Positions 5,301 through 27,147 of a stretch of 34,299 nt of DNA are shown here, piece by piece. Below the pieces are notes generated by a model. That model saw only the letters and a list, made by a program, of their open reading frames with translations. It had not been told where the DNA came from and did not search any database. Position 1 is the stretch's first letter; each line of letters opens with the position of its first letter. Source of the stretch: Oscillospiraceae bacterium (GTDB lineage: Bacteria > Bacillota > Clostridia > Oscillospirales > Oscillospiraceae); assembly GCA_017436785.1 (NCBI GenBank), contig JAFSCK010000003.1, positions 1 through 34,299 of the forward strand. The letters run 5' to 3'. The translations under genes and the position numbers were made by a program.

Positions 5301-6458
5301 ATGACCAGAAAAATCATTTCCGTGCTCCTTGCGCTGATTCTCTGCTTTAGTCTGGCGTTATCTGTTTCCGCGGAAGAAAGAAACATCGCTTTTGTTTATG
5401 ATGAACTGGGCTATCTGACCCAGGAAGAACGCACAGCTTTGAGTGACCGCGCCTGGGAAATCTATCAGGAAACCGGTGTAGGTATCTTCTATGCGTATCT
5501 CACAGCGGAATCCCTGCAGACTTATGACACGCGCTTCTTCGCAAAGGGTATCGAAAATTATGTGATCATGATGGAAAACGAGACCAGCTGGTATGTACAT
5601 CTGGGTGGTCAGGGTGAGATCATCGACCTTGAAGCGGAGAAAGAACTGCGGGCCATCTATGACGAAACCGAAACCTATGCAGAAGGCGTTATGGCCTTTA
5701 TGGAAGCTTCCGCGGAGTATTTCCCCACAATTCCTGCAGCTACCGATGCTGCCGAGGAAATTGCCTATGATGCAGAAGAACGCTTTCTCTACGACGATGC
5801 AGACCTTCTGACTGAGGAACAGGAAGCCGCTTTGGTGCAGAAGCTGGAGGATGTCAGTCATGCCCATAATACCCAGCTTGTGGTTGCCACACTCCCCGCT
5901 CTGAACAATGGTAACATAGATGATTTCGTGGAGTATCTGTACGACTCCATGGACTTCGGCTACGGGGAAACCAAGGAGGGCGTTCTGCTGCTGGTCTGCA
6001 TGGACCCTCGGGAGTACCGCATTCTGAGCAACGGTCAAGCGGGTGTGGCCATCGGTCCTGACCAGATCGATACCTTGTGCGACTTCATGGAGCTGTATCT
6101 TCCCAAAGGCAGCTACGCTGCCGCATTCAATTCCTTTGCCGATCAGTGCGGTGAAATGCTTCAGTACTATGAAAGCGGTTCTCCCTTCCAGGTGGGAAAG
6201 AATCTGGCCATCAGTCTGGTGATCGGCCTTGTGGTGGGCCTGATCGTTGCCTTTATTCTGAAGGGACAGCTGAAATCTGTCCGGAAACAATATGCTGCCC
6301 ATGTATATGTAAAGCAGGGCAGTATGCAGGTAACTCTCCAGCACGATATTTTCCTCTACCGGAATGTGACCCGCACCGAAAAACAGAAACGGGAGGAGTC
6401 TTCCAGTTCTTCCGGTTCCGATGGTACCGCACGAACCAAGGGCGGCGGTTCTTTCTAA
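5301..6458 (+). CDS. TPM-domain membrane protein, YdjH/YgcG-like
   Basis: This 385-residue protein has a signal peptide (residues 1-24, ending VSAEE), two successive TPM-like domains, one membrane segment (about 302-323, LAISLVIGLVVGLIVAFIL) and a Gly/Ser-rich cytoplasmic tail ending KGGGSF, as in many TPM proteins. The second TPM domain (about 150-285) is well formed: YDDADLLTEEQEAALVQKL, then YGETKEGVLLLVCMD. The first (about 28-130) is weaker and lacks the second motif. I chose the ATG with GGAGG eight bases upstream, immediately after the previous gene, over a longer reading that starts inside it. TPM proteins such as YdjH act outside the membrane and partner with YdjG and YdjI. This is the last gene of the cluster before a hairpin. 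Confidence 0.85.
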   Translation: MTRKIISVLLALILCFSLALSVSAEERNIAFVYDELGYLTQEERTALSDRAWEIYQETGVGIFYAYLTAESLQTYDTRFFAKGIENYVIMMENETSWYVHLGGQGEIIDLEAEKELRAIYDETETYAEGVMAFMEASAEYFPTIPAATDAAEEIAYDAEERFLYDDADLLTEEQEAALVQKLEDVSHAHNTQLVVATLPALNNGNIDDFVEYLYDSMDFGYGETKEGVLLLVCMDPREYRILSNGQAGVAIGPDQIDTLCDFMELYLPKGSYAAAFNSFADQCGEMLQYYESGSPFQVGKNLAISLVIGLVVGLIVAFILKGQLKSVRKQYAAHVYVKQGSMQVTLQHDIFLYRNVTRTEKQKREESSSSSGSDGTARTKGGGSF

Positions 6459-12068: not shown

Positions 12069-12623
12069 TTATTCTTTCACTTCCAGAAGTTTGGAAACCA
12101 GTTCGATAAACGATTCTTCCTCGATGGGTTCGTCCTGCTTCAGAAAATGAAATATAGTATTTGTCAAACCTCCGGCACAAAAGGCCGCAGTCCCTTCAAT
12201 TTGGGTCTGACTCATGGAATCCTGTTTCGCACGGCGAAGGACCTGGGTAATATCAAAGCTGATCTGTTCCAGCAGAATGCTCAGCAGCATAGGGAACATA
12301 CTGCTTTCTTTGATATTCTGAATAAACTGCGCGTTTTCCCGGACAAAGCGCAGAGATTCCCGGCACATATGCAGCAGATAAGCATCCACTTCATCCTCTG
12401 CAATCTCCGGCGCAAGACGGTCCTGAAAGGCCTCCACCACTTCCTTAATGTAGAAAGTAAAGTATTCGTACTTATCCGCAAAGTGCTTATAGAAGGTTGT
12501 ACGGCGAATCATCGCCCTGTCGCACAGCTCATTGACGGTCAATTCCTCAAAGCGCTTTTCTGTCAGCAGCTCCATAAACGCATTGTGCAGTGCCAGATAT
12601 GTTTTCCGGATTCTCAGATCCAT
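12069..12623 (-). CDS. TetR-family transcriptional regulator
   Basis: This 184-residue protein has the N-terminal TetR helix-turn-helix: MDLRIRKTYLALHNAF, ELLTEKRFEELTVNELCDRA and RRTTFYKHFADKYEYF (residues ~1-55). An all-helical ligand/dimer domain follows. The ATG at 12623 was chosen because GGAGG lies five bases upstream; an ATG 12 codons earlier lacks such a site. The gene is divergent from the MMPL transporter. Its promoter -10 (12725-12730) overlaps the transporter -10 (12729-12734), so binding there would control both. Such regulators usually repress a neighbouring export gene until a ligand is bound; the ligand is unknown. Confidence 0.9.
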   Translation of the reverse strand: MDLRIRKTYLALHNAFMELLTEKRFEELTVNELCDRAMIRRTTFYKHFADKYEYFTFYIKEVVEAFQDRLAPEIAEDEVDAYLLHMCRESLRFVRENAQFIQNIKESSMFPMLLSILLEQISFDITQVLRRAKQDSMSQTQIEGTAAFCAGGLTNTIFHFLKQDEPIEEESFIELVSKLLEVKE

Positions 12624-12680
12624 TTTTTCCTCCACGATAACGCCTCCATTCGGAAACACTTTTGCTGCTTTTGTTCGTTA

Positions 12681-12753
12681 AGTAACAGGCAGTCGAGGCT
12701 GTCTCTTGCGGTTTTTCTGCATCAATATTATCATTATAATGTACTTTTGTCAA
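12681..12753. promoter_or_regulatory. Overlapping divergent promoters and likely TetR operator
   Basis: For the plus strand: TTGCGG (12706-12711), a 17-base spacer and TATCAT (12729-12734). For the minus strand: TTGACA (12753-12748), a 17-base spacer and TAATAT (12730-12725). An imperfect dyad ACAGGC-x6/7-GCTGTC (about 12685-12702) adjoins the plus -35. The block 12681-12726 is a copy of the one before the membrane-protein gene at 11112. The dyad is a candidate operator; this is not proven. Confidence 0.65.
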
Positions 12754-12781: not shown

Positions 12782-15238
12782 ATGCGGATGCATGAGGATA
12801 CGAAAACCGTCCAGGAAGAAGGCGGCATGATGAAGGTTGCGGCATTCATTGTGGACAAGCGCAATCTGTTCTTCCTGATTTTGATCATTGGATTGATCTT
12901 CTCAGCTTTTTCTACCTCCTGGGTGCAGGTGGAAAACAGCCTGCCGGAATATCTGCCAGACGATTCGGAATCCCGACAGGGTCTGGATGTGATGTCAGAG
13001 CAGTTCATTACCTATGGAACGGCATCCGTTATGGTGGAGAATGTTTCTCTTGACCGGGCAGAAACCCTGTACGATGAACTGTGTGCCATTGACGGAGTCC
13101 AGAGCATCGGTTATCTGGAAAATGAGGACTATAACAATGTCTCTGCATTGTATGAGATCACCTTTGATTACAGTGAAACCGATGACCGTTGCCTTGAAAC
13201 ATTGGATGCCGTCAAGGAACATTTAAGTGCACACGATTACTATGTTTCTACTGCATTGGGCAATTCCACAGCGGAGATCATTGACAAGGAAGTCAGTGTC
13301 ATCATGGTGATCGTAGCCATCATTGTGGTAACAGTTCTGATTTTTACCTCCTCCACCTATGCAGAAGTTCCGGTACTTCTGCTGACCTTCGTATCTGCCA
13401 TGATCCTGAATCAGGGAACGCAGTTCCTTTTGGGAAAAATCTCCTTTGTGTCCAATTCTGTTACCAGTGTTTTGCAGCTGGCACTGTCCCTGGACTATGC
13501 AGTTATTCTGTGTAACCGGTTCAAAGAGGAGCGGGAAAGCCTACCCCTGCGGGAAGCGGTGGTCACTGCTCTGAGCAAGGGTATTCCGGAGATCACCTCC
13601 AGCAGCCTGACTACCATCGGTGGTATGGTTGCCATGATGTTTATGCAGTTTAAGATCGGCCCGGATATGGCAGTTTGTCTGATCAAGGCTGTGCTGTTTG
13701 CGCTGCTGGCGGTGTTTGTCATTATGCCGGGACTGCTGATGCTGTTTGGTCCCCTCATGGAGAAAACCAAGCACAGAAATTTCGTCCCTCATATTCCTTT
13801 TGTCGGTAAGTTCGCCTATAAGACCCGATACATCATTCCTCCGGTTTTTATTGTACTTATGCTATTGGGTTATCACTTTTCAAATCAATGTCCCTATGTT
13901 TATGGCTACGGTGAAATAGCAACACCGAAGCTGAATTATGTCCAGATTGCTGAGAATAAAATCCGGGACAATTTTGGTGCCACCAATTTCGTGGCTCTGG
14001 TCTATCCCAGGGATGATTACGAAATTGAAAAGGAAATGCTGGCAGAATTGGATACCTATGCCGAAATCGACTATTCTATGGGCCTTTCCAATGTGGAAGC
14101 CATGGATGGATATTGTCTGGCAGATAAGCTGATCCCCCGGCAGTTAGCGGAGCTGGCAGGATTGGACTACGAACTGGCCCAGGTGGTTTACGCAGCCTAC
14201 GCCACAGAGCAGGGAGACTATGGCAGCGTAGTCAGTAATCTTGCCACCTACAAGGTTCCTTTAATTGACATGATGCTTTTCGTCTGCGACCAGATCGATG
14301 CCGGACTGGTCACTCTGGAAGAAGATCAAATGGACATGTTGAAGGAGGCCCAGACCCAGATGAAGGCCGCCAAAGCACAGCTTCAGGGCGAAGAATATAA
14401 CCGGGTACTGATCTATCTGAATCTGCCGGAAGGCGGTGATGAGACCTATGCCTTCCTGGATACCATTCGTTCTGTTGCCAAAAAGTATTATCCCGGAGGA
14501 AATGTCTATGTGGTAGGTGATTCTTCTGTTGAGCAGGATTTTAAGTTATCCTTTGCATCAGATAATCTGGTTATCACCATTGTATCGATCCTGATCGTTT
14601 TGGCGGTTCTTCTGTTTACCTTCAAGTCTGCAGGCATGCCTCTGCTGCTGATCCTGGTGATTCAGGGCGCTATCTGGATCAACTTTGCAATTCCTGCCTT
14701 TACAAAGCAGCCTCTGTTCTTTATGAGCTATCTGGTGGTCAGCTCCATTCAGATGGGTGCTAACATCGACTATGCCATCGTCATTGCCTCCCGGTATCAG
14801 GAACTGAAGAACGAAATGCACCATCGGGATGCCATTATCGAGACAATGAACTTTGCATTCCATACCATCATTACTTCCGGTACGATCATGGCCTGTGCTG
14901 CTGCACTGATTGGTATGCTGACCTCGGAAGCTGCCATTGTTGGCATCGGTCAAAGTATGGGGCGCGGTACCATCATTTCCATTATTTTGGTCATGTTCGT
15001 TCTGCCCCAGATTTTGTTGGTGGGTGGCGAGATCGTAGATAAGACCTCTTTCTCCATGCCCAAAGCAAACCTGCCCAAAATCACCGGAAACGGTCATGTC
15101 CGTGTAGACGGCATGGTGCGCGGTGAAGTCCACGGCTTTGTCAGTGGTATCATCCGGGCAGACATCAACGGAGATGTTGACTTAAATTTGCTTTCTGGAA
15201 AATCCTTGGAGGAAGGAGGAATTACTGATGAAGCGTAA
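12782..15238 (+). CDS. MMPL/RND-family transporter with bactofilin-like tail
   Basis: This 818-residue protein has the RND/MMPL two-fold plan. TM1 (about 19-38) is followed by an outer domain, then a bundle of five segments (about 175-330). A second half repeats this: TM near 355-372, an outer domain, and segments from about 600 to 755. Typical features are ALSLDYAVILCNRFKEE in the first half and GANIDYAVI-like GANIDYAIVIASRYQEL in the second, each with the intramembrane Asp of proton-driven members. The last ~45 residues (GHVRVDGMVRGEVHGFVSG, IRADINGDVDL) are short beta repeats like those of bactofilins. MMPL proteins export lipids or other hydrophobic molecules. The chosen ATG follows AGGAAGG; a GTG at 12767 is possible. 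It overlaps the next gene by 11 bases. Confidence 0.88.
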   Translation: MRMHEDTKTVQEEGGMMKVAAFIVDKRNLFFLILIIGLIFSAFSTSWVQVENSLPEYLPDDSESRQGLDVMSEQFITYGTASVMVENVSLDRAETLYDELCAIDGVQSIGYLENEDYNNVSALYEITFDYSETDDRCLETLDAVKEHLSAHDYYVSTALGNSTAEIIDKEVSVIMVIVAIIVVTVLIFTSSTYAEVPVLLLTFVSAMILNQGTQFLLGKISFVSNSVTSVLQLALSLDYAVILCNRFKEERESLPLREAVVTALSKGIPEITSSSLTTIGGMVAMMFMQFKIGPDMAVCLIKAVLFALLAVFVIMPGLLMLFGPLMEKTKHRNFVPHIPFVGKFAYKTRYIIPPVFIVLMLLGYHFSNQCPYVYGYGEIATPKLNYVQIAENKIRDNFGATNFVALVYPRDDYEIEKEMLAELDTYAEIDYSMGLSNVEAMDGYCLADKLIPRQLAELAGLDYELAQVVYAAYATEQGDYGSVVSNLATYKVPLIDMMLFVCDQIDAGLVTLEEDQMDMLKEAQTQMKAAKAQLQGEEYNRVLIYLNLPEGGDETYAFLDTIRSVAKKYYPGGNVYVVGDSSVEQDFKLSFASDNLVITIVSILIVLAVLLFTFKSAGMPLLLILVIQGAIWINFAIPAFTKQPLFFMSYLVVSSIQMGANIDYAIVIASRYQELKNEMHHRDAIIETMNFAFHTIITSGTIMACAAALIGMLTSEAAIVGIGQSMGRGTIISIILVMFVLPQILLVGGEIVDKTSFSMPKANLPKITGNGHVRVDGMVRGEVHGFVSGIIRADINGDVDLNLLSGKSLEEGGITDEA

Positions 15239-18200
15239 GCTGCTTTCTTTCATTCTTGTAATATGTATTCTTTTTGGCTGCACGCTCCCGGCCTTTGCCC
15301 AGGAGGAAGAAACCGCAGATTTGCCTGTATATACGGAAACCATTGAGATAAACAGCACCGAGGACTTTCTTGCATTTGCCAGGAACTGTACCCTTGATGT
15401 CTGGTCTCAGGATAAGCTGGTTTCTCTGAATACCGATATTTCCCTTGCCGGAACCGGTTTTCTGCCGATCCCCACCTTTGGAGGCTGCTTTGCGGGCAAC
15501 GGGCATACCATAACCGGACTTTCTGTTACGGAGGAGATCGTCCCGACTGGTTTGTTCAGCTATCTGCAGCCCACAGCCGTTGTAAAAAATCTGAATGTAG
15601 CCGGAACCGTTACCCCCTCAGGGGATGCCAAATTTGTTGGAGGTATTGTGGGCGATAACCGCGGCACTCTGGAAAACGTGACTTTCTCCGGCACGGTGGA
15701 AGGTACCGAAAACGTGGGCGGCATTGCAGGAATGAACAGCGGAACCATTCTGAAGTGCTCTGCTGAGGGTTTTCTCATGGGAGAAAAAGCCACCGGCGGT
15801 ATTGCAGGGTACAATGTGGGGCAGGTGGAATCCTGCAAAAATGCTATGGATGTGAATATGGAAAGTGTGGATCCCACCATTGATCCCACAGACATCGATC
15901 TGGATTTCACCATGGATGTCAGTACACTGACAAACTTCAACACCAGTACAGCTGCCAGTGATACCGGCGGCATCGTGGGTTATTCTGCGGGCATCATTCT
16001 GGGCTGCAGCAATACCGGCACCATTGGTTATCCCCATATCGGCTATAACCTGGGCGGCATTGTGGGCAGAAACTGCGGTTATGTGGCAGCCTGCGAAAAT
16101 ACCGGAACCGTCTATGGACGCAAGGATGTGGGCGGTATTGCCGGTCAGATTGAGCCGGACATTGCAACGATCCTGTCTCCGGATTATCTGCAAAAGCTTA
16201 GTGACCAGTTTGAGCAACTGGGAAATATGATCAGTTCAGCCGGAAGTGCTGCCAGTGCCGCAGGCAGTGAATTTCAATCCTATATCCAGACCATCGCTGC
16301 CTATGAAAGTCAGGCAAAGGCCGCGCTGAATTCCATCCATTCCGGCATATCCGGCACCCTTTCCGGTCTTGGTTCCGGAGAACTGCCCTCCGCACCGGAC
16401 TTGAGCGGTTTTTCCAGTCTGGCAAGTGCCATTCAGGGACTGGTAAATACCACCCAGAGCATGGGCTATGCCATGGGAGAAAGTGTGGAGGACATGACCG
16501 GCAGTGTGGGTGCCATTTCCGGACAGATCAATTCCATCGCAAAGACCTTTGAAGCCGCAACAGAGGACGCTAAAAAAGAGGCGATCACCGATGTTTCCGT
16601 TGCGGATATCGCAGAGGTCAAAAGCGGCAAGGTTTTTGACTGCGTAAACAGCGGCAGCGTTCAGGCCGATCTGAACACAGGCGGCATTGTGGGTGTCATG
16701 GGACTGGAAGCGGAAGCTGATCCGGAGGATGATCTCCATGGCGGCGGTACCTTCTCCCAGCGCAGACAGTATGAGCTGAAGGCCATCGTGCAGTCGTGCA
16801 TAAACACAGGTCACGCAGAATCCAAGCAGAATTATGCAGGCGGCATCTGCGGCCGTATGGAGCTGGGGCTGATTACCGGAAGTGAAAATTACGGCAGCGT
16901 TGCCAGCACAAGCAGTGACTATGTGGGCGGCATCGCCGGTATTGCTGGCGGTACCATCCGAAGCTGCTATGTAAAATGCAGTTTATCCGGTAAAGATTAC
17001 ATAGGCGGCATCGCCGGTAATGGTGTGACCGAAGACATAACCGGCGGCAGCAGTCTGATCGCGGACTGCTACAGCATGGTGGAAATTGAGCAGGGCAGCC
17101 AGTACCTTGGTGCGGTTTCCGGCGGTGAGAACGGCACCTATACCGGGAATTATTATGTGTCAGATACCCTGGGCGGTGTGAACCGTGTAGGCTATTTTGC
17201 CCTTGCCGAGCCGATCTCCTATGAAGCTCTGCTGAAAACCGAAACCATTCCCACACAAATGAAAAAACTCACACTGACCTTTATGGCAGATGGAGAGATA
17301 TTGAAGCAGCTCTCCTTTGATTACGGAGATTCCTTCGACCATACCGTATTCCCCCGGATCCCGGAAAAGGAAGGACATTATGCCCGGTGGGATCGTGGTG
17401 AATTGACGGATCTACACTTCGACACCGTTGTGACAGCCCAGTATTTCCCACATATCACAGCTTTGAACAGCACAGATGTCCGTCCTAACGGAAATCCCGT
17501 TCTCTTCGTTCAGGGACAGTTCCAGGACGGGGATGTGCTGACAACCCAATTGGGTGAAACAAAATTTATTACTGGAGAGAATCAGCAACTTCTGGAGCAC
17601 CTGTGCATCAGCATCCCGGCAGATGGTCTGGATACCCACACCATCCGTTATCTCCCGGTGGAGGATTGCAGTATCTATGTTCTGAAAAACGGAAATTGGA
17701 CAAAGGCAGACACGGAGGAAATGGGCAGTTACCTGGCCTTCTCCGCTCCCGGTGCAGTGGTGGAATTTGTGTCCGTGCGGGAAAGCTTTGACTGGGTGAA
17801 GATTATCTATATTGCCGCAGGAGCGCTGATTCTGATCCTCTTGTTCATTATTCTGCTTCACAGAAAAAAGAAAGCTGCAAAGCAGAAAGACCAGCCGCAG
17901 GAAGCTGCTGCGAAAAAGCCAAAGCGCAGCAGGAAAAAGTGGCTGGTTCCGGGAATCGGAATCCTTCTGATCGCTGTTGTGATCTGTCTGCTGTATTATC
18001 TGCCCCAAACCCGGAAGGCTGTAGAAACCATCCGGGCCTATGACATCTTACGTGTTTATATGGAGCAGCCAGACCAGACCATGCACATGGATGTTCACGC
18101 AAAGATCGCTGACCGGGAACTGAATTTTGGCGCAGATGTCACCCGGACCGGTGTCGGAGACACCCCGGTCACCACCGTATCCGAAAACGGTCGAACCCTT

Positions 18201-19238
18201 TACTATGCCGATGATGTGGTCTTTCTTCCCGACGGTACCGCCTACAAGCTCAGCAGCGATGCGCCGGATTATTCCCGGATCCTGGATCAGCTGCTGGAGC
18301 TGTATTCTCTGGTAGATGTGGAAGCGGTAAACGGAATTTATACCGTCACCGCAGAGGGAGATTCCGCAAGGAAACTGCTGGAGCTGCTTCTGCCGGGTGC
18401 AAAGTCTCTGCTTTCCGATACCAACCGGCTGACGGTAGACCTTCTGACCGAAGCAGATGCACTGACGGAAATTCACTTTACCGGAGCCGGTAATCTGGCG
18501 GATTCTGTGAAAACACCCTTCTCAGTATCCGCTGTGGTGAAAATTCTGCCCCCTTCCGGCGGGAATATCCCCCAGGTCATATCGGATGCTGTGCTGTCCG
18601 GTGATTATCAGGCACAGGAAGTGTATTCCGATGACCTTGTGCGGCTGATTCATGCCTGGAAGGACTATAATGTCCGCAATCCGATAGGCGCTGACGTAAA
18701 AATTGCTGCTGACTTAGGCCCCATGGTGGTGAATGAGGATTTCCGCTTCTACCAGTGGAAGGTGGAAGAATCTGTGATCCATGGCATGGAAAAGGAGGGC
18801 CTGACGGTCTATCTGGCAAACGGAACCCTGTATGATGCGGAAGGCCACTCCGTGCCGTTGGGCAGCGCTCCCAAAATAGATATGGCAGCCACTCTGGATC
18901 TGGTTTATCAGAATTTCAGCAATGCCAGGTTCCAGTGCGAGAATACGGAAGAAGGAGCCCTTTACACCGTGACCCTGAACGAGGCCGGTATGAACGCGCT
19001 GATGACCGCGGTCCTTCCGGAAGCTGCGGAAATGGATATTTCCCACAGGGATGGTACCATGCAGCTTTTGATTCGGGATGGTGCCTTGCACAGCATCCGT
19101 ATTCTCTGCGGTGGAAGCGCAAAAGTGGCTGTGGTGGATGTGTCTGTGACGTTATCTATGGAAATGGTCATGATGGATACCATTTCGGCGGAGCTGCCGG
19201 AACCTGTCATTCTGCTGGCAGCAGACGATGAAGGATAA
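15228..19238 (+). CDS. Giant surface protein with GLUG-like repeats and two membrane segments
   Basis: The 1336-residue protein has a signal peptide (1-25, ending AFAQE). Gly-rich repeats of the GLUG/beta-helix type (GGIAGMNSG, GGIAGYNVG, GGIVGYSAG, GGIVGRNCG, GGIAGQIE) run from ~130 to 310 and again from ~480 to 640, split by an Ala/Ser-rich helical part (~325-470). A beta-rich part follows (~690-850). The first membrane segment is at ~857-879, then a Lys-rich loop (RKKKAAKQK), then a second at ~905-925. A C-terminal ~410-residue outer domain of alternating strands comes last (e.g. MHMDVHAKIADRELNFGADV), recalling LolA/LppX-like lipid-binding folds by pattern only. It is translationally coupled to the MMPL gene by an 11-base overlap. 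I infer that it extends the transporter outside the membrane. Confidence 0.8.
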   Translation: MKRKLLSFILVICILFGCTLPAFAQEEETADLPVYTETIEINSTEDFLAFARNCTLDVWSQDKLVSLNTDISLAGTGFLPIPTFGGCFAGNGHTITGLSVTEEIVPTGLFSYLQPTAVVKNLNVAGTVTPSGDAKFVGGIVGDNRGTLENVTFSGTVEGTENVGGIAGMNSGTILKCSAEGFLMGEKATGGIAGYNVGQVESCKNAMDVNMESVDPTIDPTDIDLDFTMDVSTLTNFNTSTAASDTGGIVGYSAGIILGCSNTGTIGYPHIGYNLGGIVGRNCGYVAACENTGTVYGRKDVGGIAGQIEPDIATILSPDYLQKLSDQFEQLGNMISSAGSAASAAGSEFQSYIQTIAAYESQAKAALNSIHSGISGTLSGLGSGELPSAPDLSGFSSLASAIQGLVNTTQSMGYAMGESVEDMTGSVGAISGQINSIAKTFEAATEDAKKEAITDVSVADIAEVKSGKVFDCVNSGSVQADLNTGGIVGVMGLEAEADPEDDLHGGGTFSQRRQYELKAIVQSCINTGHAESKQNYAGGICGRMELGLITGSENYGSVASTSSDYVGGIAGIAGGTIRSCYVKCSLSGKDYIGGIAGNGVTEDITGGSSLIADCYSMVEIEQGSQYLGAVSGGENGTYTGNYYVSDTLGGVNRVGYFALAEPISYEALLKTETIPTQMKKLTLTFMADGEILKQLSFDYGDSFDHTVFPRIPEKEGHYARWDRGELTDLHFDTVVTAQYFPHITALNSTDVRPNGNPVLFVQGQFQDGDVLTTQLGETKFITGENQQLLEHLCISIPADGLDTHTIRYLPVEDCSIYVLKNGNWTKADTEEMGSYLAFSAPGAVVEFVSVRESFDWVKIIYIAAGALILILLFIILLHRKKKAAKQKDQPQEAAAKKPKRSRKKWLVPGIGILLIAVVICLLYYLPQTRKAVETIRAYDILRVYMEQPDQTMHMDVHAKIADRELNFGADVTRTGVGDTPVTTVSENGRTLYYADDVVFLPDGTAYKLSSDAPDYSRILDQLLELYSLVDVEAVNGIYTVTAEGDSARKLLELLLPGAKSLLSDTNRLTVDLLTEADALTEIHFTGAGNLADSVKTPFSVSAVVKILPPSGGNIPQVISDAVLSGDYQAQEVYSDDLVRLIHAWKDYNVRNPIGADVKIAADLGPMVVNEDFRFYQWKVEESVIHGMEKEGLTVYLANGTLYDAEGHSVPLGSAPKIDMAATLDLVYQNFSNARFQCENTEEGALYTVTLNEAGMNALMTAVLPEAAEMDISHRDGTMQLLIRDGALHSIRILCGGSAKVAVVDVSVTLSMEMVMMDTISAELPEPVILLAADDEG

Positions 19239-19257: not shown

Positions 19258-19323
19258 ATGAAAATGATAAAAGTTGGAATGGAGAGCAAAAAATGGATTA
19301 TACAAAAAAGCCTTTTAACCTGA
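19258..19323 (+). CDS. 21-residue overlapping ORF ahead of the GH3 gene
   Basis: An ATG at 19258 with a strong AAGGAG site six bases upstream opens MKMIKVGMESKKWIIQKSLL in a frame different from the GH3 gene, whose ATG (19293) lies inside it. It ends at 19323. Its ribosome site is better than that of the GH3 gene. It could act in translational coupling or be an accidental frame. Confidence 0.35.
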   Translation: MKMIKVGMESKKWIIQKSLLT

Positions 19324-21047
19324 CGGGAGCAGACCTTGCCTGGGTGGAGCAGACCTTCGCAGCCATGACCCAGGAGGAAAAGCTGAATCAGGTATTCGTG
19401 GATATGCTCTGGAACAATCCGCCCAAGGAGGTGGCTGCTTCTCAGGGCAAGTATCAGCTGGGCGGCTTCCGCTACAATAACATGAGTCCCGAAAAGCTCT
19501 ATGAGCAGAATGAAACCATCCAGAAAAGCAGTAAGATCCCGGCCCTGATCGCCGCCAATGTGGAAGCAGGCGGCAACGGTGCGGTTTCCGGCGGCACTCA
19601 TCTGGGCGAAGGTATCGCCTGCGCTGCTACCGGTGATCCCAAAAGCGCCTATGCCATGGGTTACTTCGGCTGCAAGGAGGCTGCCGCTGTGGGCTGCAAC
19701 TGGACCTTTGCGCCTGTGGTAGACATCGATTTCAACTGGCGCAACTGCGTGATCCCCACCAGGTGCTTCGGCAACGATCCCGATACCGTCCTTGCCATGT
19801 CCAAAGCCTATATGGAGGGTGCCCACAAGGCCGGTGTTGCCTGCTGTATGAAGCATTTCCCCGGTGACGGCTGTGACGAGCGGGACCAGCATCTGGTTAT
19901 GACCGTCAACGACCGGAGCGTGGAGGAATGGGATGCCAGCTACGGCAAGGTCCTCAAAGGTATGATCGATGCCGGTGTTCCCTCTGTGATGGTGGGCCAC
20001 ATTGCGCTGCCTTCCTATTCCCGGTTCTTTAAGCCCGGTATCGAGGACAAGGATATCCTTCCTGCCACCGTTGCGCCGGAACTGCTGCAGGGACTGCTCC
20101 GCCAGCGTCTGGGCTTCAACGGCCTGATTATCACCGATGCCACCCATATGGTGGGCATCACCGCGCAGATGCGCCGCCATGATTTCATTCCCCAGGCATT
20201 GATGGCCGGTTGTGATATGATCCTCTATTACCGTAATCACGATGAGGATATCGGCTATCTGAAGGAAGCGCTGACGGACGGCAGACTGACCCAGGAACGT
20301 CTGGACGAAGCTGTGAAAACCGTGCTCGCATTCAAGGCATCCATGAAGCTCCACGAAAAGCAGAAGGCCGGAACGCTGATGCCGCCCAGAGAAGATATGC
20401 AGGTCATCGGCTGTGAAGCGCACAAGGCTATGGCTGCTGAGATCATCGACAAATCCATCACCCTGGTCAAAAACACCCGGAATCAGCTGCCCCTTGACCC
20501 AAAGAAGCACAAGCGCATCGTGATCTACACTGTCCAGAGCGGCGGCCTGACCCAGAAGATCAAGCAGATCGCCCATGGCGGCAAGGGCGGCAGCGTCAGC
20601 GATACGCTGGCAGAAGAACTGAAAAAGCAGGGCTTCGAGCCTACGATCTACAAGGTCAATTATCTGAAATACATCAGTCCTCATGGTATCAACGGCAAGA
20701 AAGCACTGGCAGAGGTATCTGTTGGAGAGTTCGCAAAGATGTACGATGCTGCTATCGTGCTGTGCAATGTGGGGTCCTTCTCCACCACCAATGAGCGCAG
20801 CCTGCACTGGACCATCCCCATGGGACCCGAGATCCCCTGGTATGCCTCGGAGATCCCCACCATTGCCATTTCTGTTGCCCACCCCTTCCATCTGATCGAC
20901 CTGGCCATGGTGCCCACCTACATCAACACCTACTCCGGCTCTAAGGAAGCCATTCGCCAGACCGTTGCCAAACTCATGGGCAAGTCGGAATTTAAGGGCA
21001 CCAGCCCCGTGGATGCCTTCTGCGGCAGGTGGGATACCCGTGTGTAA
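19293..21047 (+). CDS. Glycoside hydrolase family 3 enzyme, beta-N-acetylhexosaminidase-like
   Basis: This 584-residue protein has no signal peptide, so it is cytoplasmic. The N-terminal GH3 barrel (about 15-345) carries KHFPGDGCDERDQHL (187-201), the counterpart of the NagZ-type KHFPGHG-x4-DSH loop. Asp198 and His200 would form the acid/base dyad, and LIITDATHM supplies Asp282 as nucleophile. In the loop the usual second His of KHFPGHG is Asp192. A C-terminal GH3_C-like part follows (about 385-570). Likely substrates are N-acetylhexosaminides from cell wall or host glycans. The GAGAGC site before ATG is modest. It lies 54 bases after the GLUG gene with no terminator between, so it may share that transcript. 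Confidence 0.85.
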   Translation: MDYTKKPFNLTGADLAWVEQTFAAMTQEEKLNQVFVDMLWNNPPKEVAASQGKYQLGGFRYNNMSPEKLYEQNETIQKSSKIPALIAANVEAGGNGAVSGGTHLGEGIACAATGDPKSAYAMGYFGCKEAAAVGCNWTFAPVVDIDFNWRNCVIPTRCFGNDPDTVLAMSKAYMEGAHKAGVACCMKHFPGDGCDERDQHLVMTVNDRSVEEWDASYGKVLKGMIDAGVPSVMVGHIALPSYSRFFKPGIEDKDILPATVAPELLQGLLRQRLGFNGLIITDATHMVGITAQMRRHDFIPQALMAGCDMILYYRNHDEDIGYLKEALTDGRLTQERLDEAVKTVLAFKASMKLHEKQKAGTLMPPREDMQVIGCEAHKAMAAEIIDKSITLVKNTRNQLPLDPKKHKRIVIYTVQSGGLTQKIKQIAHGGKGGSVSDTLAEELKKQGFEPTIYKVNYLKYISPHGINGKKALAEVSVGEFAKMYDAAIVLCNVGSFSTTNERSLHWTIPMGPEIPWYASEIPTIAISVAHPFHLIDLAMVPTYINTYSGSKEAIRQTVAKLMGKSEFKGTSPVDAFCGRWDTRV

Positions 21048-21847: not shown

Positions 21848-22204
21848 ATGAAAATCGTTGGTCAGCGGCTGCGTGCTCTGCGGGAGAGTGTGAAGATGTC
21901 CCAGGCGAAGATCGGTGCGCTCTTTGGTTGTAAGCAGTCCAGCATCAACCGCTATGAGAGCGGTGAGGCATCTGCGCCCTATGAAGTCCTGCTTCAGTAC
22001 GCAGACCATTTCGATGTGTCAATGGATTACATCTTCGGACGGACAGACAACCCTCAAGGTAAGCTGTACGAAAACAAACCCAAGGTGGAGAAGATCTATC
22101 CCGAAATGGAGAAGTTTATCGAGATGTGTTTTGATCCCGGTTCACCCATGAATGAGCGGCTGAAGGAATCTCTGCTTCGCATGATGAAGGAGGGAGCAGA
22201 ATGA
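21848..22204 (+). CDS. Phage-type helix-turn-helix repressor (XRE family)
   Basis: This 118-residue protein has an N-terminal XRE/Cro-CI DNA-binding domain: GQRLRALRESVKMSQAKIG, ALFGCKQSSINRYESGEASA and LLQYADHFDVSMDYIFGRTD (residues ~5-62). A short helical C-terminus follows. The strong site CAGGAGG precedes ATG. It overlaps the recombinase start by four bases (ATGA), so the two are translated together. It probably controls its own promoter and the recombinase, as in other recombinase-borne elements. Confidence 0.9.
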   Translation: MKIVGQRLRALRESVKMSQAKIGALFGCKQSSINRYESGEASAPYEVLLQYADHFDVSMDYIFGRTDNPQGKLYENKPKVEKIYPEMEKFIEMCFDPGSPMNERLKESLLRMMKEGAE

Positions 22205-23568
22205 AAGCGGTCATCTATGCCCGGTATTCCTCTGACAGTCAGCGGGAAGAATCCATCGAAGGTCAGATCCGGGAATGTACCGCCTTTGCCGAGAAGAACG
22301 GCATCACCATTCTGAGGCACTACATTGACCGTGCCTACTCTGCAAAGACCGATAACCGCCCGGAATTTCAGAACATGATCAAGGACAGCAGCAAGAAGTT
22401 GTTCGATATGGTCATTGTCTGTCATACCGCTGATCTTTCCGAGAAAGTCATCCGCGGTATGACAGACAATGCGCTGAAATGTAAATACAACGGCGGCACG
22501 TTGCCTGTCGGTTACATCATCGATGAAGAACAGCACTTCCAAATCGATCCGCTGACCGCTCCCTTTGTTCTGGATGCTTTTAAGAAATACGACAAGGGAG
22601 CCACTATGACGGAGCTTCGGGATTGGCTGAATGAATGTGGAATTAAAAACACAAGAGGCCAGTCCATGAAGTACAACAGCATCCAGCATATGCTGACCAA
22701 CCGCCGCTACATCGGAGAGTTCAAATACCGGGATGTGATTGTACCGGACGGAATCCCTGCTATCGTCCCTCAAGACCTCTTTGACCGGGTTCAAAGGAAA
22801 CTGGAGCAGAACAAGAAAGCCCCGGCCCGAAATAAAGCCGAGGAAGAATATCTGCTGACTACCAAACTGTTCTGCGGTTATTGCGGAGCGTATCTCTGTG
22901 GAGAAAGCGGCAAAAGCAGAAACGGCACTGTCCATCACTACTATAAGTGTGTGTCCGTGAAAAAGAAGCGCACAGACTGCAAAAAGAAAGCAGCACGGAA
23001 GCAATGGCTGGAAGATCTGGTAGTCACAGAAGTTATGAAGGTGGTCATGGATGACAAGGCCATCGAAGCAATCGTATCTCAGGTGATGGACTTGCAGGAC
23101 AGAGAGAACACTACCCTGCCTGTTCTGGAAAGCAGTCTCCGGGAAGTGGAAACGGGAATCCAGAATATCCTGAATGCAATCCAAATGGGCATCCTCACCA
23201 AATCCACAAAGAGCCGTCTGGAAGAACTGGAAAGCTCTAAGGAGGATCTGGAAATCAAGATCGCCAACGAAAAGCTGGCAAAGCCCAGAATCAGCCCCGA
23301 GTTCGTCACCTTCTGGCTGCACAAATTCCGCAAACTGGACATCAACAGACAGGATCACCGGAAGTGGCTCATCCACGTTTTTGTTAATGCCATCTACCTG
23401 TATGATGACAAAATGGTCATTACCTTCAACTACAAGGATGGCACAAAAACCATCACGCTCGATGATGTAAAACGGGCAGTTAACAAAGATAATACCGGTT
23501 CGGATTTGGAATGCCATGGTGCACCAACGAAACAAGGACACCTCTATGGGGTGTCCTTGCTTCGTTAA
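22201..23568 (+). CDS. Large serine recombinase with internal deletion in the catalytic domain
   Basis: The 455-residue protein opens with the resolvase motif YARYSSDSQ (catalytic Ser10) and continues SIEGQIRECTAFAEKNGI. At residues ~73-78 the sequence jumps from LFDMVIV directly to ADLSEKV. Full-length relatives have about 50 residues there, including the Arg-bearing LDRFARN segment and ESVLEGYAEYYS. The rest is intact: recombinase domain (about 95-200, GTLPVGYIID, MLTNRRYIGEF), zinc beta ribbon (CGYCGAYLCG and a later Cys pair, about 225-265), coiled coil (about 300-365) and the usual C-terminus. The frame is kept, so a protein is likely made, but it lacks essential catalytic arginines. It may bind DNA without cutting. 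This is an inference from remembered relatives. Confidence 0.85.
   Translation: MKAVIYARYSSDSQREESIEGQIRECTAFAEKNGITILRHYIDRAYSAKTDNRPEFQNMIKDSSKKLFDMVIVCHTADLSEKVIRGMTDNALKCKYNGGTLPVGYIIDEEQHFQIDPLTAPFVLDAFKKYDKGATMTELRDWLNECGIKNTRGQSMKYNSIQHMLTNRRYIGEFKYRDVIVPDGIPAIVPQDLFDRVQRKLEQNKKAPARNKAEEEYLLTTKLFCGYCGAYLCGESGKSRNGTVHHYYKCVSVKKKRTDCKKKAARKQWLEDLVVTEVMKVVMDDKAIEAIVSQVMDLQDRENTTLPVLESSLREVETGIQNILNAIQMGILTKSTKSRLEELESSKEDLEIKIANEKLAKPRISPEFVTFWLHKFRKLDINRQDHRKWLIHVFVNAIYLYDDKMVITFNYKDGTKTITLDDVKRAVNKDNTGSDLECHGAPTKQGHLYGVSLLR
23526..23566 (+). terminator. Hairpin overlapping the recombinase stop
   Basis: Arms AACGAA (23526-23531) with TTCGTT (23561-23566) and AAGGACACC (23534-23542) with GGTGTCCTT (23550-23558) form a long stem over the last codons. 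No T run follows. It may be a terminator or part of the element attachment region. Confidence 0.5.
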
Positions 23569-23882: not shown

Positions 23883-23928
23883 ATTACAAGGTATGTTTAT
23901 CATTTCCTCAATTAAGGAGGGATTTTGT

Positions 23929-25476
23929 TTGAGCTTAAAAAAGAAGCTGCTGATGGTGCTGCTGGTTTTGCTGCTGCTGGTGTCGGTGCTGGCGGGGCTT
24001 TTGTGGCACCGGGATCATTATACGATGGTGGATTTCCGGTTCTATCCCAAGGATGCCCGAAATCTGGACCTGCGGGGCAAAAATATCAGTGTCCGGCATT
24101 ATGAAAAGCTCCTGCGGCGGATGCCCGGGGTGGATGTGATCTGGGATGTGCCTCTATCCGACGGCTCCTATCCCAGCAACGTCAAGGAGATCGCCATTAC
24201 GGGGCTGAAGGACAAGGACATTAAAACCATGGATTACCTGACCCGGCTGGAGCTGGTGAAGGCCGACGGCTGTGAGGACTATGCCCAGCTGCTGGCCCTG
24301 CAGCAGCACCGGCCCGATGTGGAGGTCAGCTACCGCATCCAGCTGGGACAGAAGATGGTATCCAACTCTGCCCGGGAGGCGGAAGTGAAGAATCCCACGC
24401 TGGAGCAGATCGAACTGCTGCAATACCTGCCTGTGCTGGAAACCGTGGTCTGCACCGGCGGCGAGGAGGAAGCTCTGACGGCCCTGCGGGAATACTGCAC
24501 AGTAAACAGCCTCCAATTCGGCATAGTAGTCAATGGCCAGACCCTGTTGGAAAATGAGAAGGAGCTTCGGCTGGTGGGCGCATCGGAGGAGGATGTGTTC
24601 CTGCTGCAGTTCCTCACCGGGGCGGAGCGCATCCATCTGGTGGAGCCGGAAACCGGCGCGGATAGCCTGCTTGCCCTGCGGCAGGCTCTGCCGGAGACTC
24701 AGGTCAGCTGGGAAAAGGAGATCTACGGGGAAAATCACTCCACCGAGGATACGGAGATCGACCTTTCCGAGGTCCCCATCCGCAGCTTGGACAAGCTGGA
24801 GCAGTCCCTTGCCTACTTCCCTGATGCGAAGACCGTGTATCTTGGCAAGCAGGAAATTGACAACGACACGCTGGCCAAGTACCGGGACCAGATGCGGGAT
24901 AAATACAAGGTGGCATGGCAGGTCCAGCTGGGCGAAAAGCTGACAGCCCGTACCGACGACACCACCTTCATGCCCGTCCGGGAAAGCGTGTACTACTTCA
25001 AGGATCACGAGGCGGTGAATCTGCGCTACTGCGAGGATATGGTCTGCATCGACATCGGACATATGAGCATTTCTGACATTTCCTTCGTAGAGTACATGCC
25101 CAATTTGGAATTTTTGATCCTTGCCCATACGCAGGTGCAGTACATTGAGCCCATCCGCAGCTGCAAGAATCTGAAATTCTTGGAGCTGGACTGGAGCCCC
25201 ATCCGGGACCTGTCCCCGCTGGTGGACTGCACAGGCCTTGAGGACCTGAACATCGGCAATACCTATGCCAGAGTGGACCCTGTGACCCAGATGACTTGGC
25301 TGAAAAACCTGTGGATGATCGGCTGCGGTCAGGGCAATATTTATAAGGCAGTACAGGGCCTGACGGATACGAAGATCATGTACAGCGGCGATGCCACCGT
25401 AGCCGGCGGCTGGCGGGAGCTGGACAACTACTTTGAAATGCGCGACCTGCTGGGCATGGAATATATGCCTTGGTAA
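23929..25476 (+). CDS. Membrane-anchored leucine-rich-repeat-like protein, paralogue 1
   Basis: A 515-residue protein with a short basic N-terminus and one membrane segment (LLMVLLVLLLLVSVLAGLL, about 7-25), so it is anchored with the bulk outside. The ectodomain starts with a conserved DFRFYPKDARNLDLRGKNIS. Two weakly repeated modules of ~90 residues follow, then C-terminal leucine-rich repeats (about 365-460: VCIDIGHMSISDISFVEYM, LEFLILAHTQVQYI, LKFLELDWSPIRDLSPLV, LEDLNIG). The TTG start was chosen because GGAGG lies eight bases upstream; the ATG at 23893 would lack a site. It lacks a sortase signal. It is followed by its own terminator. LRR proteins usually bind other proteins; the partner is unknown. 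Confidence 0.78.
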   Translation: MSLKKKLLMVLLVLLLLVSVLAGLLWHRDHYTMVDFRFYPKDARNLDLRGKNISVRHYEKLLRRMPGVDVIWDVPLSDGSYPSNVKEIAITGLKDKDIKTMDYLTRLELVKADGCEDYAQLLALQQHRPDVEVSYRIQLGQKMVSNSAREAEVKNPTLEQIELLQYLPVLETVVCTGGEEEALTALREYCTVNSLQFGIVVNGQTLLENEKELRLVGASEEDVFLLQFLTGAERIHLVEPETGADSLLALRQALPETQVSWEKEIYGENHSTEDTEIDLSEVPIRSLDKLEQSLAYFPDAKTVYLGKQEIDNDTLAKYRDQMRDKYKVAWQVQLGEKLTARTDDTTFMPVRESVYYFKDHEAVNLRYCEDMVCIDIGHMSISDISFVEYMPNLEFLILAHTQVQYIEPIRSCKNLKFLELDWSPIRDLSPLVDCTGLEDLNIGNTYARVDPVTQMTWLKNLWMIGCGQGNIYKAVQGLTDTKIMYSGDATVAGGWRELDNYFEMRDLLGMEYMPW

Positions 25477-25483
25477 GAAAATC

Positions 25484-25512
25484 AGCCCCGGACCGACAGG
25501 TCCGGGGCTTTT
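25484..25512 (+). terminator. Terminator between the LRR paralogues
   Basis: Eleven-pair stem AGCCCCGGACC/GGTCCGGGGCT (25484-25494 with 25499-25509), loop GACA, then TTT. Confidence 0.9.
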
Positions 25513-25526
25513 CCTGCAACTTTCCC

Positions 25527-25555
25527 TTGACTTATTAAAAAAATCGGCCCATAAT
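25527..25555 (+). promoter_or_regulatory. Promoter of the second LRR-like protein
   Basis: TTGACT (25527-25532), a 17-base spacer with a run of seven A, CATAAT (25550-25555). It is very like the promoter at 23854-23882. Confidence 0.8.
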
Positions 25556-25599
25556 AGACCTATCTAGGACGAAATTCATAAATCCCGGGAGGGGAAACT

Positions 25600-27147
25600 G
25601 TGAAAGATAACAAAAAGCTGATGATAATATTGGCAGGACTTTGCCTGCTGCTGGTGGCGGGCTTGGTCTGGATGCTGGCGACCCATCATGTGGTGGGCTG
25701 GCGGCTGTATCCCAAGGATGCGGCGGCGCTGGACCTTCGGGAGGAAAATCTGAGCATTGCCAATTATGATGCGCTGCGGCAGAAAATGCCGGAGATCCCC
25801 ATCCGCTGGAAGGTGCCCTTTCAGGGCGGCGCTGTGGCGGACGATATCACAGAATTGACAGTGACGGACCTGACGGAAGCGGACCTGAATGCGCTGGACC
25901 ATCTGCCCCAGCTGGAAACGGTCCATGCAGAGGGCTGCACCAACTATGCCGCCCTGTGGGCGCTGCGGCAGCGCCTCCCGGAGGTGCAAATCCACTACAG
26001 TGTCAATGTGGACGGTCAGGTGCTTCCTGAGGATACCGCAGCCCTGACGCTGGGCGGTATCACCATGGAGGAGCTTTCCCTGCTGTGCTACCTGCCGGAG
26101 CTGAAGTCCGTCACCGTCACCGGCGGTGACCGGACGGAAAACCTGCTCCCGCTGCAGGACCATTGCCGGGAGTGGGACATTGGGTTCTTCCTGCGCCTCG
26201 GCGGCGAGGATGTGCCGTGGGATGCTGAGGAATTGGAAGTTTCCGGCGTAACAGAGGGAGAGCTGAATCTTCTGGCCCTCCTACCCAACTTGACGCGGCT
26301 CCATCTGGAAGCGCCCGAAGCCTCTGCCGAAGCAGTCCTTGCCCTGAAGGAACGCTATCCCAAGGTGCAGACCACTTGGGCTGTGGACTTCGGCGGCGTG
26401 AGGGTGGCTTCTACGGATGATATGGAGGAGATCGACCTGTCCGGGGCCCAGCTGGAAAGCTTGGAGCAGCTGAAAGCCGGTATGACCTACTTCCCGGAGG
26501 CAGAGGTCGTGTTCCTTGGAGACTGCGCCTTTGAAAACGAGGACCTTGCCCAGCTGCGCAATGAAATGCGCCCGGAGTACAAGGTGGTCTGGATCGTGGA
26601 TTTCAACGGCAAATTGCCCAGCCGCACGGATATCAAGGACTTTTCTCCCGGCCGGGACGGGGTGTACCGCTTTAATAACGATGATGCCTATAATTTGCGC
26701 TACTGCGAGGAGATTGTCTGCATGGATATCGGCCATATGACGGTGCGGGATGTGGATTTCCTTGCCTTTATGCCGGATATCGAATATCTGATCCTTGCCC
26801 ATACCGAGGTTCAGTACATCGATGCCATTTCTAACTGCAAGAAGCTGAAATTCTTGGAGCTGGACTGGAGCTGCATCCGGGATGTGTCCCCGCTGGTGGG
26901 CTGCACCGGTCTGGAGGACCTGAACATCGGCAAGACATGGGTGGATGCTACCCCCATCTTTGAAATGACTTGGCTGAAAAATCTGTACATGATCCACGGC
27001 AACAAGGCACAGGCATGGCAGGCCAGTCAGGCTATGCCCGACACCCGGGTGGTGGCCAGCGGCCCCGTGACCGTGGGAAGCGGCTGGCGGCGGCTGCCCA
27101 ATTACTATGCCATGCGGGATTACTTAGGTGTGCCCTATATGAATTGA
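25600..27147 (+). CDS. Membrane-anchored leucine-rich-repeat-like protein, paralogue 2
   Basis: The 515-residue protein is a paralogue of the previous gene with the same length and layout: membrane segment about 7-26 (LMIILAGLCLLLVAGLVWML), the opening WRLYPKDAAALDLREENLSI, repeated ~90-residue modules, and C-terminal LRR units (CMDIGHMTVRDVDFLAFM, IEYLILAHTEVQYI, LKFLELDWSCIRDVSPLV, LEDLNIGKTW). It begins at GTG with GGGAGGGG upstream. The C-terminal LRR half is far more conserved between the two than the N-terminal half. The ectodomain is probably outside the cell. The next gene is a sortase, but neither LRR protein carries a visible sorting motif. Confidence 0.78.
   Translation: MKDNKKLMIILAGLCLLLVAGLVWMLATHHVVGWRLYPKDAAALDLREENLSIANYDALRQKMPEIPIRWKVPFQGGAVADDITELTVTDLTEADLNALDHLPQLETVHAEGCTNYAALWALRQRLPEVQIHYSVNVDGQVLPEDTAALTLGGITMEELSLLCYLPELKSVTVTGGDRTENLLPLQDHCREWDIGFFLRLGGEDVPWDAEELEVSGVTEGELNLLALLPNLTRLHLEAPEASAEAVLALKERYPKVQTTWAVDFGGVRVASTDDMEEIDLSGAQLESLEQLKAGMTYFPEAEVVFLGDCAFENEDLAQLRNEMRPEYKVVWIVDFNGKLPSRTDIKDFSPGRDGVYRFNNDDAYNLRYCEEIVCMDIGHMTVRDVDFLAFMPDIEYLILAHTEVQYIDAISNCKKLKFLELDWSCIRDVSPLVGCTGLEDLNIGKTWVDATPIFEMTWLKNLYMIHGNKAQAWQASQAMPDTRVVASGPVTVGSGWRRLPNYYAMRDYLGVPYMN

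What the first reader, a model, noticed from the sequence alone, without database searches (positions are those of the whole stretch)
12782..19238. MMPL transporter coupled to a giant GLUG-repeat, two-pass surface protein: candidate new export system
The transporter carries an added bactofilin-like beta tail and overlaps by 11 bases the gene for a 1336-residue protein with outer beta repeats, a cytoplasmic Lys-rich loop and a large C-terminal outer domain reminiscent by pattern of LolA/LppX lipid carriers. In mycobacteria LppX-type proteins work with MmpL transporters. Here carrier, surface arm and pump could form one TetR-controlled lipid or glycolipid export machine in a single-membrane bacterium.
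Basis: inference. Interest (0 to 1): 0.7.

Follow-up and report, generated by a model that had tools for sequence, protein, structure and literature searches.

The report
MMPL pump with partner surface arm
Many gut bacteria carry a membrane pump whose gene overlaps, or is fused to, the gene for a large surface protein with a coiled-coil arm, so the two probably form one undescribed export machine, perhaps for lipids or other greasy molecules.

Summary
Genes for an MMPL-family pump (12782-15238) and a 1336-residue, apparently two-pass GLUG protein (15228-19238) overlap by 11 bases. The pairing recurs in gut Clostridia: a pump lies directly upstream in 138 of 139 distinct fetched loci with room to see one and in 20 of 20 fetched class and phylum loci (two fused). 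In at least two lineages the genes are fused. On a quick pump tree the GLUG partner needs one gain and one loss, the loss in a clade with coiled-coil partners instead. The GLUG protein carries a heptad-patterned insert, so it may supply in trans the coiled-coil arm that MmpL5 carries inside the pump. The last 412 residues are two copies of one domain, unmatched in Pfam, NCBIfam and PDB but distantly similar to DUF6612, whose best PDB match is LprG. The LppX/LprG idea is thus weakly to moderately supported. No fold could be computed; the substrate is unknown. Best reading: a proton-driven amphiphile or lipid exporter with its own surface arm, often TetR-linked. New variant of a known kind.

The parts
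12069..12659 (-). TetR-family regulator gene, divergent from the pump
   Evidence: PF00440 and PF14278 over cut-off; TetR is the most recurrent neighbour of the pair
12725..12753 (-). promoter-like site for tetR (TTGACA-17-TAATAT, 10 of 12)
   Evidence: consensus scan, (three sites found in the region, 0.7 expected); no inverted-repeat operator found
12782..15238 (+). MMPL-family transporter, 818 aa from ATG 12782 (longest ORF from GTG 12767)
   Evidence: PF03176 E 5e-44; DYA motif in both halves; MmpL3/4/5 chains in PDB by sequence
15086..15199 (+). bactofilin-like glycine/valine tail of the pump, predicted cytoplasmic
   Evidence: pattern in 123 of 140 pump tails; PF04519 below cut-off in 2 of 10 tails
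15228..19238 (+). GLUG two-pass surface protein, 1336 aa; overlaps the pump gene by 11 bases
15228..15302 (+). signal peptide-like N-terminus (residues 1-25)
   Evidence: hydropathy, residues read
15333..16142 (+). GLUG repeats, first block (residues 36-305), beta-solenoid inferred
   Evidence: PF07581 stretches; conserved columns in A1
16146..16625 (+). insert between the GLUG blocks, probable coiled-coil arm (residues 307-466); short and with a modest heptad signal in the window itself (lag-7 value 0.13)
   Evidence: family-wide autocorrelation peaks at lags 7 and 14; profile positions of the insert match coiled-coil and helical-bundle chains in PDB
16626..17207 (+). GLUG repeats, second block (residues 467-660)
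   Evidence: conserved columns in A1
17265..17777 (+). conserved stretch before the membrane (residues 680-850), beta-rich by inspection
   Evidence: A1 conservation; fold inferred
17802..17996 (+). TM1 (859-877), Lys/Arg-rich cytoplasmic loop, TM2 (905-923)
   Evidence: hydropathy
18000..18605 (+). C-terminal repeat domain, copy A (residues 925-1126)
   Evidence: hhalign against copy B, Prob 99.7, E 3e-25
18606..19235 (+). C-terminal repeat domain, copy B (residues 1127-1336)

Best explanation
The two genes encode one export machine. An MMPL (RND-superfamily) pump, driven by the proton gradient, lifts an amphiphilic, probably lipid-like molecule out of the membrane. The GLUG protein is its dedicated partner: a surface beta-solenoid anchored beside the pump, carrying a long coiled coil that reaches into or across the cell wall. 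In the subset to which the window belongs, the partner crosses the membrane a second time and adds two tandem LprG/DUF6612-like domains outside, which would take the released molecule and pass it on. TetR turns the cassette on when the substrate or a related amphiphile is present. Shown: gene pairing, overlap, fusion, clustered gain and swap of the partner on a quick tree, the heptad pattern of the insert, and the C-terminal duplication. Inferred: physical complex, proton drive, arm geometry, carrier function, lipid substrate, TetR control.
For: Pump directly upstream in 138 of 139 distinct loci with room (137 by script, plus L171 seen) and adjacent or fused in 20 of 20 class/phylum loci. Genes overlap in 130 of 142 loci, with modes 4, 8 and 11 nt. 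Single-ORF fusions in L136, L265 and L266, two changes forced by well-supported branches. The GLUG label needs two changes on the 149-row pump tree, one of them a nested clade of nine pumps without GLUG; among these, L196 has a heptad-rich extension fused to the pump and L198, L199 and L202 have a separate heptad-rich gene next to it. Insert: 138 of 142 partners have a GLUG-motif-free stretch of at least 120 residues, with a lag-7 value of 0.1 or more in 115 of these 138 (shuffled mean -0.01, sd 0.06). Tandem domain with distant DUF6612/LprG similarity. Two DY[AGS] motifs in 142 of 149 pumps. A coiled-coil tube in MmpL5 is reported in PMC12501195 (passages), and LprG-MmpL11 interaction and a need for LppX in PDIM translocation in PMC8427324 (passages).
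Against: No structure could be predicted, so arm geometry, lipid pocket and the complex itself are untested. No lipid-synthesis gene recurs in the neighbourhood, so the substrate class rests on family knowledge. The C-terminal domains have no match to LppX_LprAFG or DUF6612 in Pfam and none of note in PDB. A comparison with a smaller DUF6612 alignment was weaker (P 0.008), copy B alone gave P 0.026, and two short slices of GLUG-protein alignments scored as well as the merged half profile did. In the ORF scans only one DUF6612 protein (L230) passes the reporting threshold by itself; the others rank high with E from 0.01 upward. The window's own arm has a modest heptad signal (0.13), and 1 of 138 inserts has none. 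TetR was found near only 45 of 121 pairs with room. L100, and L109 (left out), have a GLUG relative without a nearby pump.
Confidence: 0.6

Rival explanations
1. Defence rather than envelope building: the pair is a TetR-induced efflux pump for toxic amphiphiles met in the gut, such as long-chain fatty acids, bile acids or plant phenolics, and the arm carries them past the wall.
For: TetR is the most recurrent neighbour. The staphylococcal pump FarE, divergent from its regulator FarR, is called a fatty acid efflux pump, and a farR mutant excreted about ten times more phospholipid than the parent or farE mutants (PMC8844917, abstract). Many record titles name gut or rumen samples.
Against: In the fetched set most pairs have no TetR nearby that our profile found (76 of 121 with room). 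A dedicated surface protein of roughly 840-1880 residues is costly for simple drug efflux.
Confidence: 0.3
2. The GLUG protein is an adhesin or wall-binding protein that uses the pump only as a membrane partner or regulator; transport is not its job.
For: GLUG repeats occur in other surface proteins with no pump found in the fetched stretch (L111-L113), and the solenoid is large and exposed.
Against: The clustered gain of the partner on the pump tree, two separate fusions and a swap for heptad-rich partners tie it to the pump. In the fetched close relatives it is without a pump only in L100 and L109.
Confidence: 0.1
3. The C-terminal tandem domains are not lipid carriers but a ligand-sensing or scaffolding module of unknown fold, an optional add-on to the arm.
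For: No direct family match and no PDB match of note. Found in 45 of 80 named loci; five changes on the pump tree, two of which (L118, L139) are contig ends.
Against: DUF6612 proteins dominate the next-best matches of the half profile among 2625 ORFs (hypergeometric about 2e-11) and among 1357 non-overlapping ORFs (about 1e-9), and the DUF6612 profile ranks LprG first in PDB (E 0.015).
Confidence: 0.4

Closest known systems
MmpS5-MmpL5 and MmpL4 of mycobacteria
   Same: MMPL pump with a long coiled coil outside the membrane and a small dedicated partner; coiled-coil insert of 196 residues in MmpL5 (PMC12501195, passages)
   Different: Here the coiled coil sits in a separate GLUG protein made by the overlapping gene; the partner is a large solenoid, not an Ig-like MmpS; the host group has no mycomembrane (general knowledge)
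MmpL7-LppX and MmpL11-LprG
   Same: MMPL pump working with an LppX/LprG-type lipid-binding protein (PMC8427324, passages)
   Different: Here the putative carrier is a tandem pair, covalently part of the surface arm and not a lipoprotein; the link to LprG runs only through DUF6612 profiles
FarE-FarR of Staphylococcus aureus
   Same: RND-superfamily pump (MMPL type as recalled) with a divergent TetR-family regulator in a single-membrane bacterium (PMC8844917, abstract and section list; FarR as TetR family, PMC10019231, title in listing)
   Different: No GLUG partner is mentioned in the abstract that I saw; pump sequences were not compared here
DUF6612 (PF20316) lipoproteins
   Same: Distant sequence similarity to each C-terminal copy
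   Different: No copy reaches the Pfam family in a direct scan
YhgE/Pip and EsaA/YueB proteins of Bacillota (recalled)
   Same: Membrane proteins with long helical arms reaching into the cell wall
   Different: Recalled only, not compared; they are not GLUG solenoids

Membership tests
MMPL transporter family (PF03176) | two MMPL domains over cut-off | tested here: met
   151 bits against 20.5, two stretches
MMPL transporter family (PF03176) | Asp-Tyr pair in both halves (proton relay; motif meaning recalled) | tested here: met
   DYA at 222 and 647 of P0001; 142 of 149 pumps have two such motifs
MMPL transporter family (PF03176) | proton-driven transport | not testable with these tools
   needs biochemistry
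Named MMPL subfamilies (TIGR00833, TIGR00921, HpnN, MmpL3) | score over NCBIfam cut-off | tested here: not met
   121.9 against 874.7, 125.3 against 351.9, 56.5 against 751.85, 47.9 against 1400
MmpL4/5-type pump | long coiled coil inserted in the pump's own outer domain | not tested
   no domain-level comparison of the outer loops was made; pump is 818 aa, MmpL4/5 chains listed are 739-1028 aa, some of them cut or tagged constructs
GLUG motif proteins (PF07581) | GLUG repeats over cut-off | tested here: met
   21.7 against 20.5 bits, four stretches
LppX_LprAFG (PF07161) | Pfam match of the C-terminal domains | tested here: not met
   none of 42 members at E up to 1
DUF6612 (PF20316) | Pfam match of the C-terminal domains | tested here: not met
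   none of 42 members at E up to 1
DUF6612/LprG superfamily | profile-level homology | tested here: inconclusive
   enrichment and copy A P 3e-4 for; copy B P 0.026, P 0.008 and no PDB match against
DUF6612/LprG superfamily | half-barrel fold with lipid cavity | not testable with these tools
   structure prediction switched off
Bactofilin (PF04519) | match over cut-off in the pump tail | tested here: not met
   2 of 10 tails below cut-off, window tail none
FarE-FarR-like pump and regulator | TetR gene divergent from the pump | tested here: met
   window TetR on the minus strand
FarE-FarR-like pump and regulator | fatty acid or phospholipid export | not testable with these tools
   needs lipidomics

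The most novel reading that the evidence does not exclude
A class of export machine in single-membrane bacteria in which the pump's wall-spanning conduit is a separate, swappable surface protein: a beta-solenoid with an inserted coiled coil, optionally carrying two covalently tethered lipid-shuttle domains, so that lipid is lifted, guided through the peptidoglycan and handed over by one two-gene unit.
Probability: 0.3. Interest if true: 0.8.

Novelty: new variant of a known kind. Interest (0 to 1): 0.55.

Why it matters
MMPL pumps export lipids, siderophores and drugs in mycobacteria, but how their cargo crosses the layers beyond the membrane is unsettled; the MmpL5 paper says substrates must cross the remaining space by a yet unidentified mechanism (PMC12501195, passage). 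A widespread gut-bacterial pump with a genetically fixed, modular outer partner offers a simpler setting to test how an arm and a tethered carrier extend such a pump. It would also give a function to a large GLUG family and to an unnamed tandem domain.

Tried and rejected
Direct family assignment of the C-terminal region failed in Pfam, NCBIfam and PDB (the few PDB rows shown have E of 0.26 or more). Reading the partner's Pfam and NCBIfam matches near the membrane (DUF6077, MFS, FILTED and others) as real was rejected: they are below cut-off and sit on the hydrophobic segments. Bactofilin membership of the pump tail was rejected. A conserved gene neighbourhood beyond TetR was sought; the next cluster occurs in 10 of 137 loci. 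No inverted-repeat operator was found between tetR and the pump, and no terminator-like site just after the pair. LppX_LprAFG proteins were sought in 199 genomes of the phylum for a profile comparison, but only one genome had a match, so that comparison was not made. Literature: no held paper has both MMPL and GLUG; the listings of searches showed no paper on the pair; DUF6612 gave no paper.

Rows dropped before counts: of the 120 matched genomes, I fetched 75 loci from 73 genomes, the strongest rows; 47 genomes with mostly weaker matches were not looked at. Of the 31 other matched genomes, I fetched 20. L109-L113 were left out (L109 a GLUG fragment without a pump in 12.5 kb, L110 a C-terminal fragment, L111-L113 other GLUG proteins without a pump). 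8 duplicates were removed there, and 4 loci ended at a contig edge. In the enrichment figures the ORFs of L251-L253 were left out because they had been fetched by, or from a hit of, the same profile; K of 20 counts the DUF6612 ORFs kept. The 2625-ORF set holds many antisense ORFs; the non-overlapping set was made to check that. L118 and L139 count as lacking the C-terminal domain on the trees but end at a contig edge. The overlap rule takes the ATG nearest the pump stop, which favours small values. Arm lengths of 149-506 come from the 65 of 142 proteins in which boundary patterns were found; one search used a looser rule on 141 of 142.
Full report
What is in the window. The window is one contig of a 3.05 Mb, 174-contig genome. 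The pump ORF runs to 15238; its best start is ATG 12782 behind AGGAAGG, giving 818 residues. It has two MMPL domains, matches MmpL3/4/5 chains in PDB by sequence, scores below the cut-offs of the named NCBIfam subfamilies, and has a DYA motif in both halves. The next gene starts at 15228, an 11-base overlap. Its 1336-residue product has a signal peptide-like start, GLUG motifs just over cut-off, two hydrophobic segments with a Lys/Arg-rich loop between, and a C-terminal region of 412 residues. A TetR gene is divergent upstream with a promoter-like site. The same genome holds a second pump-GLUG pair on contig C50 without the C-terminal region.

The pair is a conserved system. In 300 genomes of the window's family, 120 have a match to the GLUG protein at E up to 1e-5; this includes generic GLUG matches. 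I fetched 75 loci from 73 of these genomes, the strongest rows. Their titles name Clostridia, Oscillospiraceae, Ruminococcaceae, Lachnospiraceae, Roseburia, Faecalibacterium, Gemmiger, Oscillibacter, Solobacterium and Erysipelotrichales, and many name animal gut samples. Of these 80, 78 have the pump directly upstream on the same strand (one as a fusion, L136) and two begin at a contig edge. Pooled and freed of 8 duplicates, 143 distinct loci remain: 137 with an adjacent pump by script, L171 also (its GLUG ORF start was over-called; pump seen), four cut by a contig edge, and L100 without a pump. L109, left out of that pool, also lacks one. At class level 29 of 245 genomes, own included, match at E up to 1e-20; at phylum level 5 of 249, own included. 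In all 20 class/phylum loci fetched, the pump is next to the GLUG gene (18) or fused with it (2). Genes overlap in 130 of 142 loci, most often by 4, 8 or 11 bases.

Fusions. In L136 (Candidatus Darwinimomas equi, Lachnospiraceae) one 2152-residue ORF holds pump, GLUG solenoid, insert and C-terminal domains; the pump's tail is absent and the partner's signal peptide-like segment follows in the same frame. L265 and L266 have single ORFs of 1921 and 1912 residues. On a 169-row pump tree these three need two changes, forced by starred branches, so fusion happened at least twice.

Partner history. On a 149-row FastTree tree of pumps, the GLUG label needs two changes, which fits one gain and one loss in a nested clade of nine pumps, L195-L203. 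In that clade L196 carries a heptad-rich C-terminal extension in the pump itself, L197 and L203 are as long (by length only), L198, L199 and L202 have a separate heptad-rich protein next door, L195 has a similar ORF nearby, L200 stops at a contig edge and L201 has a gap of unknown letters. Further out, L210 and L211 have a coiled-coil-like gene with a signal peptide-like start just downstream; for L205-L209 no partner was noticed. The recurring element beside these pumps thus looks like a coiled coil rather than the GLUG solenoid as such. The tree is a quick one, and its checks warn of long branches among the outermost rows.

The arm. Between the two GLUG blocks lies an insert. In the 65 of 142 proteins that could be parsed by boundary patterns it is 149-506 residues long (median 231). 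Hydrophobic residues repeat at lags 3/4, 7 (0.22) and 14 (0.19); the flanking GLUG blocks show -0.06 and -0.07 at lag 7, and five coiled-coil-like partner stretches 0.44. With a looser rule, 138 of 142 proteins have a motif-free stretch of at least 120 residues; lag 7 is at least 0.1 in 115 of these 138, against a shuffled mean of -0.01 (sd 0.06). The window's own value is a modest 0.13, and one insert (L154) shows none. In a search of PDB with alignment A1, the insert positions match designed antiparallel coiled coils and helical bundles (best E 1.6e-6), which supports the class of fold, not kinship. In MmpL5 a 196-residue coiled-coil insert inside the pump forms a 13 nm tube (PMC12501195, passages read). 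That the GLUG protein supplies such an arm in trans is inference.

The C-terminal domains. The 412 residues are two copies of one domain of about 200 residues (hhalign probability 99.7, E 3e-25, 17% identity). Neither Pfam nor NCBIfam nor PDB gives a match of note. A profile of both copies, run against 2625 ORFs from the fetched DNA, finds its own family, then a 250-residue single-domain membrane protein (L252, same as L244; 61.6 bits), then DUF6612 protein L230 (18.4 bits, E 1.5e-4), then L253 and L251 (fetched through this profile, so not counted), then L220 (12.1 bits, E 0.013) and, at E above 0.2, L234, L232, L214, L224 and L231 among a few others. Except for L251-L253 these named ones are DUF6612 matches. 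In a stricter set of 1357 non-overlapping ORFs the order is much the same, and the one non-DUF6612 row above L234 (L263) proved to hold a remnant of the domain itself. The chance of six or more of 20 such proteins in the first ten is about 2e-11 and 1e-9, with the caveats given under dropped rows. hhalign of copy A against a DUF6612 alignment gives P 3e-4 over 180 columns, copy B 0.026, the merged profile 7e-4; reversed controls give 0.1-0.6, but two short slices of GLUG-protein alignments reach 7e-4 and 1e-3, and a DUF6612 signal-peptide match with the GLUG N-terminus reaches 7e-5. A smaller DUF6612 set gives only 0.008. The DUF6612 profile's best PDB match is LprG (E 0.015), with LppX at 0.42. 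I read this as a probable but unproven LprG-type fold. The module was found in 45 of 80 named loci and 10 of 75 unnamed ones besides the fragment L110. On the pump tree it needs five changes, which fits one gain and four losses, two of these (L118, L139) being contig ends.

Regulation and context. TetR lies upstream within 2.5 kb in 45 of 121 pairs with room, 26 divergent and 19 same-strand, in 34 of 137 loci as one BLAST cluster and in 14 of 20 class/phylum loci, in two of these downstream of the partner. The next most frequent neighbour cluster occurs in 10 of 137 loci. The cassette therefore looks self-contained, and context does not name the substrate.

Mechanism. Family knowledge of RND/MMPL pumps gives proton drive and amphiphilic cargo. 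In S. aureus the pump FarE is called a fatty acid efflux pump, and a farR mutant excreted about ten times more phospholipid than the parent or farE mutants (PMC8844917, abstract and section list only). LprG is reported to interact with the PD2 domain of MmpL11, and lppX mutants are defective in PDIM translocation (PMC8427324, passages). Put together, the best reading is an amphiphile or lipid exporter with a surface arm and, in the window's branch, tethered carrier domains. Pairing is close to certain, physical complex very likely, lipid cargo likely, carrier function open. No held paper on the pair appeared in searches; most subscription papers are not in that library.

Noticed in passing
L039 (own genome, contig C50): A second MMPL-GLUG pair in the same genome, partner 882 residues, no C-terminal domains.
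   Followed up: partly
L212:1674-6212: A 1512-residue MMPL pump with a very long run of helical-looking repeats inserted between its halves.
   Followed up: no
L196:2345-6022: MMPL pump with a long heptad-rich stretch fused to its C-terminus.
   Followed up: partly
L210:5169-7142 and L211:5345-7540: Coiled-coil-like proteins with signal peptide-like starts encoded directly after other MMPL pumps.
   Followed up: partly
L244:1489-2241: Stand-alone 250-residue membrane protein with one copy of the C-terminal domain, next to what looks like a Mur-ligase-like gene (ligase label recalled).
   Followed up: partly
L263:1352-2113: Just downstream of a GLUG gene without C-terminal domains, an ORF begins with what looks like the last part of such a domain before a kinase-like protein (kinase label recalled): a probable trace of domain loss.
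   Followed up: partly
window 593-6458: Run of genes with SPFH/Band 7, zinc ribbons, DUF4428 and a TPM domain.
   Followed up: no
window 23893-28053: Two leucine-rich-repeat proteins followed by a sortase.
   Followed up: no
window 21848-23568: HTH regulator followed by a serine recombinase, possibly from a mobile element.
   Followed up: no
window 19293-21047 and 30077-32419: Family 3 and family 2 glycoside hydrolases in the same window as the pair.
   Followed up: no
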